DNA from: Deltaproteobacteria bacterium
GTDB lineage: Bacteria > Myxococcota_A > Polyangia > JAAYKL01
NCBI GenBank assembly: GCA_016935665.1
Contig: JAFGQN010000203.1
Coordinates: 1 to 49,236 of the forward strand
Direction: 5' to 3'
DNA length: 49,236 nt
A program made the translations under genes and the position numbers. This document shows, in pieces, positions 20,408-22,799 of the stretch. The notes beneath the pieces are model-generated. The model searched no databases. It saw only the letters and a list, made by a program, of their open reading frames with translations, and was not told where the DNA came from. Position 1 is the first letter of the stretch; each line of letters starts with the position of its first letter.

Positions 20408-21193
20408 TCACTCTTTTAAAAATTTTTCGATGGTGTCGAACCAGACCTGATGCATTTGAGGGCTGATGCTGTGGGAAATTCCCTGAAATTCAATGAATTC
20501 CGCGTTGGCTCCCATTTGCTGCAGCTTGCGGACGGATTCCTTGCCGCGAGCATAATCCACGGTCTCGTCATCGGTACCGTGAAGTGCCACTATGGGGGGG
20601 AGATCTGTTCCCTGAACGGTGTCGATGGCCAGCAATCCCGATACGGGAACGGCGGCATGGACTTTATCGGGGCAGGTAACGGCCATGGAAAACGTGAGGA
20701 TACCGCCCTGTGAGAATCCGGTCACCACAGGCGGACGATCAAATTGCGGGCCACTTATGAATTGGCAAAGCGTTTGAGTCGCCTGTGCCACATCTTTTTT
20801 CAGGGTGTGCTTCGGTGTGTCCCGCACGGGAATGGCGACATCGAACCATGAGCCGCCGGGGCCGAACCGGGTAGATGCTCTGGGGAGCACAATGTCCGCA
20901 GGCAGGGGGCGCTCTTTAAACAACATGGAAAAGTGTTCCGGTGAATCCCCGAGACCGTGAATGGCCACCACTTTGCGACTGACAGCCTTGCTCTGGCCGG
21001 AGCGGATGACAATGCTGTCCAGGGTAGGCGACATGGATGCTTCCGGCTGACGACGCGATTGGGGCCGGGTTGTGTCCGTTGCCGATGCTTTTGGACCGTT
21101 GCACCCGTTCCCGGCAACAATGATCAGGCCGATGACGCCGCACAGGCAAACACTGCACGTGATGAAAAACAGATTTTTCGGTTGATGTATCAT
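20408..21193 (-). CDS. Exported alpha/beta hydrolase of the phospholipase/carboxylesterase type
   Basis: The protein is about 261 aa. A hydrophobic export signal (residues about 8-27) ends in GNGC at Cys31, a poor but possible lipobox. The hydrolase domain carries VAIHGLGD (oxyanion loop), the nucleophile elbow GFSQGG, Asp in HGTDDETVDY and His in GISHSIS, the usual order of a Ser-Asp-His triad. The best family fit is the small carboxylesterase/phospholipase group (PF02230). The frame is open back to 21292, but that start would put 99 extra bases across the divergent gene at 21222; ATG 21193 gives a normal signal peptide. The substrate cannot be named. Confidence 0.82.
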   Translation of the reverse strand: MIHQPKNLFFITCSVCLCGVIGLIIVAGNGCNGPKASATDTTRPQSRRQPEASMSPTLDSIVIRSGQSKAVSRKVVAIHGLGDSPEHFSMLFKERPLPADIVLPRASTRFGPGGSWFDVAIPVRDTPKHTLKKDVAQATQTLCQFISGPQFDRPPVVTGFSQGGILTFSMAVTCPDKVHAAVPVSGLLAIDTVQGTDLPPIVALHGTDDETVDYARGKESVRKLQQMGANAEFIEFQGISHSISPQMHQVWFDTIEKFLKE

Positions 21194-21221
21194 TCGCTTT
21201 ATTTTACTTCCAGTATCACCA

Positions 21222-22799
21222 ATGCAAAGGACATTCAACAGAACACTGGGGGAAACCGCACTGGCAGCGGTCATGATTCTCATCGTTGGCATGATGATTG
21301 TGCCGCTTTCGTCGTGGCTGATGGACTTGCTGATAGCTGCAAATCTGGCGATTTCAATGCTTATTTTCGCATTGGCGCTGTTTCAGAAAAATCCGCTTCA
21401 GTTCATGTCATTTCCTTCGGTGCTGCTGATTGCCACGCTGTTTCGATTGGCGCTGAATGTGTCCTCCACCCGGCTCATTTTGACCCGTGCGGATGCGGGT
21501 CGGATTATCGGTGGTTTTGGCGGGTTCATCGTTGGTGGCGATATCATCGTGGGCGCAGTGATTTTTGGTGTGATTCTAATGGTGTTGTTTCTGGTTATCA
21601 CCAAAGGGGCGGAACGCGTGGCCGAGGTGGCCGCCCGCTTTACCCTGGATGCCCTGCCCGGCATGCAGCTCGCCATCGACACCGATTTGCGCAGCAAGAC
21701 AATTTCCCCAAGGGAATTGACATTGCGTCGGGAAGCACTGGAAAAGCGGAGCATGTATTACGGCTCTTTGGATGGTGCCATGAAGTTTGTGAGGGGGGAC
21801 GCTGTTGCGGCCCTGGTAATTACTGTTATCAATATCGCCGGTGGCATCTCTGTGGGGTTATTTCGCCAGAATATGAACTTTATCGATTCCCTGAATCTCT
21901 ATGGCCGTCTCACGGTTGGCGATGGACTCGTGACAATGATTCCGGCGCTACTCATTTCGACAGCCGCGGGCCTGCTGGTTACCCGGGTGGCGCAGGGAAC
22001 CGATGAGGATGGATTGGCCGAGCAGTTGCGGCGTGAACTTTCGTCGACTCCCAACGCGCTTTTAGCAACTGCGACAATGATGATTCTTCTGGCGGTGGTC
22101 CCCGGACTTCCGGCCTGGCCATTTCTAATTGCAGCGGCGGGACTGGGGGCTGCTGTTCTCATCCCCAGGATGGGATCGGCACGCCAGCGATCCACAAATA
22201 AAATGGCGCGCGCATCTGTGGTGGGAGACGCCATTTCTCTGGATGAGCTGCAACAGTTATTGGATAACGTCTCTCAAACGCACCCGGTGCTTGTGAGAGA
22301 AGCGGTCTGGCAGCGAATCTCCCTGTCAAAATTGTCGGATCTGTTGGGGGAGCTCCAACAGGATGGTATTGATTCCAGATACTTGCCCGACATTCTGGAC
22401 GCTTTGGCGCGCATCACACCAGTGGATGACATGGATGAACTGATGCTCCATTTGCGTCAACGGCTTTCGTCTGTCATTTCTGCGTCCATCGGTGGTGGTA
22501 ACCATTCATTGGCGGTTATCACTCTCGAAATGGAGACCGAACAGTTGCTGCAAACCAGCCTGGTCACCTCCAGTCGAGGGAAACGGCTGGTGTTGCCACC
22601 GGAGCTGGGAACAGAACTTGTTGAAAATATAGATGATATTCATGCCAGGGGCCAAAGCTCGATAATTCTGGTGAGCGATCAACTGCGTCGACCGTTGCAG
22701 CGTTTTTTGCGTGCATCATTGAGAGATGTTCGGGTCGTTGGACACGGTGAACTGACCGATGAGACATGTGTTGAAGTGTGCGCTCAACTGTCCCTCTGA
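21222..22799 (+). CDS. Orphan type III secretion/flagellar export gate protein (FlhA/SctV family), shortened cytoplasmic domain
   Basis: This 525-aa multi-pass membrane protein is clearly FHIPEP family. LFRLALNVSSTRLIL lies at about 73-87, ITKGAERVAEVAARFTLDALPG at about 126-147, GSLDGAMKFVRGDAVA at 181-196 (including the Asp matching the proton-path residue of FlhA), and TVGDGLVTMIPALLISTAAG at 231-250. The last membrane helix ends near 316. Only about 20 residues later the sequence aligns by eye with the third cytoplasmic subdomain, starting ISLDELQQLLDNV, and runs to a normal-looking fourth subdomain (LVSDQLRRPLQRFL). Usual family members are about 680-700 aa, so subdomains 1 and 2 seem absent. 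No other secretion gene is in the window. No good ribosome binding site precedes the ATG; it is divergent from the hydrolase with 28 bases between. Confidence 0.88.
   Translation: MQRTFNRTLGETALAAVMILIVGMMIVPLSSWLMDLLIAANLAISMLIFALALFQKNPLQFMSFPSVLLIATLFRLALNVSSTRLILTRADAGRIIGGFGGFIVGGDIIVGAVIFGVILMVLFLVITKGAERVAEVAARFTLDALPGMQLAIDTDLRSKTISPRELTLRREALEKRSMYYGSLDGAMKFVRGDAVAALVITVINIAGGISVGLFRQNMNFIDSLNLYGRLTVGDGLVTMIPALLISTAAGLLVTRVAQGTDEDGLAEQLRRELSSTPNALLATATMMILLAVVPGLPAWPFLIAAAGLGAAVLIPRMGSARQRSTNKMARASVVGDAISLDELQQLLDNVSQTHPVLVREAVWQRISLSKLSDLLGELQQDGIDSRYLPDILDALARITPVDDMDELMLHLRQRLSSVISASIGGGNHSLAVITLEMETEQLLQTSLVTSSRGKRLVLPPELGTELVENIDDIHARGQSSIILVSDQLRRPLQRFLRASLRDVRVVGHGELTDETCVEVCAQLSL

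What the first reader, a model, noticed from the sequence alone, without database searches (positions are those of the whole stretch)
21222..22799. Orphan type III export gate that lacks the chaperone-docking half of its cytoplasmic domain
The FlhA/SctV-like protein keeps all membrane motifs, including the conserved Asp of the proton path, and what aligns with cytoplasmic subdomains 3 and 4. Only about 20 residues separate the last membrane helix (ends about 316) from subdomain 3 (starts about 338), where typical members have about 170 residues with the linker and subdomains 1 and 2. In FlhA the chaperone-binding dimple lies between subdomains 1 and 2, so this version should not dock chaperones in the known way. 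No other secretion gene is nearby. It may be an export channel with simplified control, or a repurposed ion/protein gate.
Basis: partly seen in the sequence, partly recalled or inferred. Interest (0 to 1): 0.72.

Follow-up and report, generated by a model that had tools for sequence, protein, structure and literature searches.

The report
Stripped-down type III export gate
The gene encodes the inner-membrane gate of a second, scattered type III secretion system whose gate naturally lacks the domain pair that docks cargo chaperones in known systems; several related genera share the loss, so it offers a natural test of which parts of this export machine are really needed.

Summary
Window 21222-22799 encodes a 525-aa FlhA/SctV homologue with the whole membrane domain and complete subdomains SD3+SD4 (model residues 336-525 fit Salmonella FlhA 502-691, Z 21, 2.0 Å). 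Only about 19 residues stand where relatives have 140-170; linker, SD1 and SD2 are gone. 'Orphan' is wrong. The genome has a flagellar set including a full-length FlhA, plus a second, scattered non-flagellar set: SctV (window), FliO+SctR, SctS+SctT, SctU, SctN, SctJ and SctQ, each at a locus conserved in relatives. The SctV shortening is shared by eight genomes in four genera, is under purifying selection (dN/dS 0.15-0.19), has full-length orthologues in sister genera and a parallel case in another family (G187). Two partners are also reduced family-wide: SctU lacks its autoprotease/switch domain, SctJ lacks RBM1. Best reading: a needleless-T3SS*-like exporter of the Myxococcota type, still proton-coupled, that has lost substrate switching and the SD2-SD4 chaperone dock. 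Secretion itself, needlelessness and cargo are untested. It is a new variant of a known kind.

The parts
21222..22799 (+). short SctV/FlhA-like export gate gene, 525 aa
   Evidence: FHIPEP E=4e-151; SctV/FlhA equivalog models hit but below their cut-offs
21222..22169 (+). membrane domain (residues 1-316), conserved charged residues kept
   Evidence: PF00771 profile 1-300; PDB sequence hits 12-319; conserved charged positions
21615..21686 (+). FHIPEP cytoplasmic loop (residues 132-155); PGKQ reads PGMQ
   Evidence: alignments
21798..21800 (+). Asp193 codon, equivalent of Salmonella FlhA Asp208
   Evidence: FVRGDA motif, invariant in the homologues aligned
22170..22226 (+). about 19-residue junction where linker+SD1+SD2 (140-170 residues) are missing
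   Evidence: junction profile matched contiguously in 4 of 379 phylum genomes
22227..22796 (+). complete SD3 and SD4 (residues 336-525)
   Evidence: phmmer to FlhA/SctV C domains, E down to 3e-12; Foldseek and VIA-align Z 20-22

Best explanation
The window gene is the SctV export gate of a second, non-flagellar type III system of the Myxococcota kind. Its genes are scattered at seven fixed loci. The machine has been stripped of soluble control domains: SctU lacks the autoprotease/switch domain, SctJ lacks RBM1, and in one group of genera SctV has lost linker+SD1+SD2. Shown: gene set, domain losses, conservation, purifying selection. Inferred: it still assembles an SD3/SD4 ring under SctRSTU, uses the proton motive force through the intact membrane domain together with SctN, and exports one class of substrate without hierarchical switching and without the SD2-SD4 chaperone dock, like the needleless T3SS* used in predation by Myxococcus xanthus.
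For: Second set in the window's genome: SctV C36; FliO+SctR C144; SctS+SctT C133; SctU C46; SctN C82 with T3SS_ATPase_C domain; SctJ C152; SctQ C224, apart from flagellar FlhA C205, FliPQR-FlhB C10, FliF/FliI C118. SctV, SctR and SctS of this set occur in all family genomes searched except G008 (88% complete), which lacks them; a few single parts were missed in incomplete genomes. G003, G005, G012, G013 have the set but no flagellar FlhA/FliP/FlhB. Each gene keeps its own conserved neighbours (Lon, BamA-OmpH, a Ser/Thr kinase, PriA). The tree separates the clade from flagellar FlhA at 100/100; full-length class-mates pass the SctV equivalog cut-off. dN/dS 0.15-0.19 overall and 0.14-0.29 in SD3-4. 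SctU without the NPTH domain that class-mates keep; SctJ without RBM1. Parallel short SctV plus short SctU in G187. FliO in non-flagellar T3SSs of Myxococcota: PMC12403147. T3SS*: PMC12075869, PMC10433427.
Against: No secretion data. A needle, secretin, SctD, SctL, SctO and a Kil/Tad partner were not searched for, so 'needleless' is carried over from related systems. M. xanthus T3SS* has LcrH-type chaperones (PMC10433427), unlike what is proposed here. In FlhA the ring uses D1-D3 as well as D3-D3 contacts, and YscV SD3-SD4 alone was insoluble (PMC7911332, PMC9163089), so ring formation without SD1 is unproven.
Confidence: 0.6

Rival explanations
1. A decaying relic: a non-flagellar T3SS losing domains on the way to loss.
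For: Several components lost domains; SctT, SctJ and SctQ diverge fast (about 25-40% identity where neighbours keep about 65-85%); G008 lacks the components searched; other families show different erosions (G015, G023, G031, G047).
Against: Core parts stay open in many genomes across four genera with the short SctV; dN/dS well below 1; charged residues of the membrane domain invariant; kept where flagella were lost.
Confidence: 0.15
2. A repurposed non-secreting complex: the export-apparatus core serves as a proton- or force-coupled base for another envelope machine (for example a Tad/Kil-type pilus) rather than exporting its own substrates.
For: Loss of substrate-recognition and switch domains with the membrane core and ATPase kept; in M. 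xanthus T3SS* acts together with the Kil pilus and is recruited by it (PMC12075869).
Against: SctN with the T3SS ATPase C domain and SctQ are kept, as expected for substrate delivery; no Kil genes were searched for here.
Confidence: 0.2
3. SD1-SD2 function supplied in trans by another protein.
For: Split domains are possible in principle; the intermediate G007 form suggests stepwise loss.
Against: A whole-genome FHIPEP search found only the flagellar FlhA and the two pieces of this gene. SD1-2 is the weakest part of the profile, so sensitivity is limited.
Confidence: 0.05

Closest known systems
Needleless T3SS* of Myxococcus xanthus (mxan_2434-2464) and the 'Myxo' non-flagellar T3SS group
   Same: Non-flagellar SctV/R/S/T/U/N/J/Q set; FliO present as reported for Myxococcota non-flagellar systems (PMC12403147); full-length class-mates score as SctV
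   Different: Genes scattered at seven loci instead of one cluster; SctU without switch domain, SctJ without RBM1, SctV without SD1-SD2. Published T3SS* includes LcrH chaperones; no report of these truncations was found in the papers searched. M. xanthus sequences were not compared directly.
Chlamydial FlhA (Cpn0363, 583 aa)
   Same: Shortened FHIPEP protein with about 308 residues of membrane part, in a non-flagellated host (PMC2830194); NCBIfam model PRK05910 is 584 long
   Different: Cytoplasmic part about 275 residues there, about 190 here; here a second set of partners exists; the window protein does not meet that model's cut-off (208.6 of 670 bits)
Flagellar FlhA / injectisome SctV
   Same: Membrane domain, FHIPEP loop, SD3, SD4
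   Different: Linker, SD1 and SD2 absent

Membership tests
FHIPEP (FlhA/SctV) family | Membrane domain with FHIPEP loop and conserved charged residues | tested here: met
   Lys of PGKQ is Met
FHIPEP (FlhA/SctV) family | C-terminal domain of four subdomains SD1-SD4 | tested here: not met
   SD3 and SD4 present, linker+SD1+SD2 absent; so it is filed as a variant, not a canonical member
FHIPEP (FlhA/SctV) family | Curated equivalog score for SctV (692 bits) or FlhA (772 bits) | tested here: not met
   464 and 454 bits; full-length class-mates meet the SctV cut-off, full-length proteins of the same family reach 455-539 bits
Non-flagellar T3SS (NF-T3SS) | Core set SctJ, N, Q, R, S, T, U, V | tested here: met
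Non-flagellar T3SS (NF-T3SS) | SctU with autocleaving cytoplasmic domain (NPTH) | tested here: not met
   236 aa, PF01312 positions 2-240 of 335, no NPTH
Non-flagellar T3SS (NF-T3SS) | SctJ with RBM1 and RBM2 | tested here: not met
   Only RBM2 and TM; PF01514 match starts at positions 72-88 in all family members
Needleless T3SS* (M. xanthus) | No secretin, needle, translocon | not tested
Needleless T3SS* (M. xanthus) | Function with a Kil/Tad pilus in predation | not testable with these tools
   Needs genetics; presence of Kil genes not searched
Flagellar FlhA | Groups with flagellar FlhA in a tree | tested here: not met
   Flagellar clade 100/100 includes the genome's other FlhA, not this protein

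The most novel reading that the evidence does not exclude
A working type III exporter that needs neither the SctV SD2-SD4 chaperone cleft nor the SctU autoprotease switch nor SctJ RBM1: a natural minimal type III export engine with a single ungated substrate class, arisen more than once.
Probability: 0.4. Interest if true: 0.8.

Novelty: new variant of a known kind. Interest (0 to 1): 0.58.

Why it matters
What the cytoplasmic domains of SctV and SctU contribute to export itself, as opposed to substrate order, has been approached mostly by mutating flagellar and pathogen systems. A lineage that has kept the membrane core, ATPase and SD3-SD4 while losing linker-SD1-SD2, the SctU switch domain and SctJ RBM1 gives a natural minimal construct to test. 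The order of loss can be read from the family: SctU and SctJ were reduced family-wide, SctV only in a subset, with one intermediate (G007).

Tried and rejected
Orphan gate: rejected, a second set was found. Assembly error or strain-only deletion: rejected by eight genomes. Compressed SD1/2: rejected by length and structure. Split SD1/2 in trans: no FHIPEP piece found. The full-length AF2 model is poor in the membrane part (mean pLDDT 59, 7 sequences); only SD3-4 (mostly 66-84) is used. A second fold of SD3-4 with 45 sequences failed once and was unfinished when the report was written. Whether the family's short SctVs arose once or twice is unresolved (56/87). Flagellin next to FliO-SctR was seen in G000 and G001 only and is taken as incidental. 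VIA-align rows to the membrane part (Z under 8) are taken as helical-bundle noise.

Full report
The gene. Window 21222-22799 (+) is one open frame of 525 codons. Pfam FHIPEP matches at 4e-151 and the whole-genome search splits the match into profile 1-300 and 473-655. Against solved structures, residues 12-319 match full FlhA/SctV membrane domains and about 335-521 match the C-terminal half of their cytoplasmic domains. The model of residues 336-525 superposes on Salmonella FlhA 502-691, Yersinia YscV 510-704 and Shigella MxiA 494-686 with Z 20-22 and 1.9-2.5 Å. With the published borders (FlhA linker 328-361, D1 362-434 and 484-503, D2 435-483, D3 504-583, D4 584-682, PMC7911332; YscV SD3 514-600, SD4 601-704, PMC9163089) the protein ends its membrane part, has about 19 residues, and then begins at SD3. 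The full-length flagellar FlhA of the same genome has 163 residues in that interval.

Motifs. Eleven charged positions that were mutated in Salmonella FlhA are kept, including the equivalent of Asp208 at Asp193; the FHIPEP-loop Lys of PGKQ is Met or Leu in the whole family (PMC3139655, PMC7911332).

Not an orphan. The genome (8.16 Mb, 249 contigs) holds a flagellar set (FlhA C205, FliP-FliQ-FliR-FlhB C10, FliF and FliI C118) and a second set: FliO and SctR at C144:8430-9405, SctS and SctT at C133, SctU at C46:27.0-27.7 kb, SctN at C82:97180-98445 with the T3SS ATPase C-terminal domain, SctJ at C152, SctQ at C224. With the window these are seven loci. Each sits in its own gene context that recurs in relatives: FliO-SctR before Lon, SctS-SctT before BamA and OmpH, SctJ after a Ser/Thr kinase, SctN after an AlgH-like and two small unnamed envelope-like genes, SctU beside PriA-like or radical-SAM-like genes (the last two names are from reading the sequences, not from a search). 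So the set looks inherited vertically as scattered genes.

The family. Second-system SctV is short in G000, G001, G002 (genus g1), G003, G012, G013 (g2), G005 (g4, contig ends in SD3) and G010 (g9, contig starts in the membrane part); intermediate in G007; full-length in G004, G006, G009, G011. The clade is separate from flagellar FlhA (100/100). Within it the short forms are one side of a branch at 56/87, so one or two losses. In 379 genomes of the phylum a profile of the junction matches contiguously only in this family and in G187 of another family, whose SctV is about 507 aa and whose SctU is also short. G015, G023, G031 and G047 carry a differently eroded SctV. Short SctVs of one genus show dN/dS 0.15-0.19 (SD3-4 0.14-0.29).

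Partners are reduced too. All second-system SctUs of the family that were read end after the membrane part and the first cytoplasmic helix (224-242 aa where the start is clear) without the NPTH autocleavage domain, even where SctV is full length; class-mates have full-length SctU, and NPTH was seen directly in four of them. SctJ keeps RBM2 and its membrane helix but not RBM1. SctN is full length.

What it is. Full-length class-mates pass the SctV equivalog cut-off. FliO in non-flagellar systems is reported for Myxococcota, including both systems of M. xanthus (PMC12403147). One of these, the needleless T3SS*, works with the Kil pilus in prey lysis (PMC12075869, PMC10433427), and the Myxo group is the earliest branch of non-flagellar T3SS (PMC3459982). 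The organism carries no name here; membership of Myxococcota is inferred.

How it probably works. Shown: the gene set, domain losses, conservation. Inferred: the SctRST channel with a bare SctU and an SctV ring of SD3-SD4 is driven by the proton motive force and SctN. SD3 and SD4 are needed for ring formation and SD2-SD4 is the chaperone cleft (PMC9163089); without SD1-2 the cleft and the FlhA dimple are gone, while the SD4-SD4 cleft used by SctO and by the SctX helix remains. Without the SctU domain there is no known switch. A system without a needle or hook has no length to measure and no late class to wait for, which would make both losses tolerable. Secretion and cargo are untested.

Verdict.

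Noticed in passing
L047 7124-7855 (G000:C152) and homologues: SctJ/FliF-like partner lacks RBM1 in every family member seen; it lies directly after a Ser/Thr kinase gene with a conserved C-terminal part.
   Followed up: partly
L187 1480-2190 (G000:C46): SctU-like protein without autoprotease domain, the same in all family genomes read; G187 and G345 of other families also have short ones.
   Followed up: yes
L075 6867-9141 (G000:C82): Two small envelope-like proteins without Pfam family and a weak zinc-phospholipase-like protein sit before SctN in several genera; candidate new components or substrates.
   Followed up: no
L074 10692-13039 (G000:C133): SctS-SctT are flanked by a protein without Pfam match that looks like GltJ/AgmX C-terminal parts (by eye) and by an MshEN-receiver-TPR protein, conserved in four other genomes.
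   Followed up: no
L061, L064, L072, L073: In another family (f3) the second SctV lost its last membrane helices and part of the cytoplasmic domain; no SctU was found in three of the four genomes.
   Followed up: partly
window 20408-21292 (-): Alpha/beta hydrolase ORF overlaps the first bases of the SctV ORF on the opposite strand when read from its first ATG; a homologue is also beside SctV in G002.
   Followed up: no
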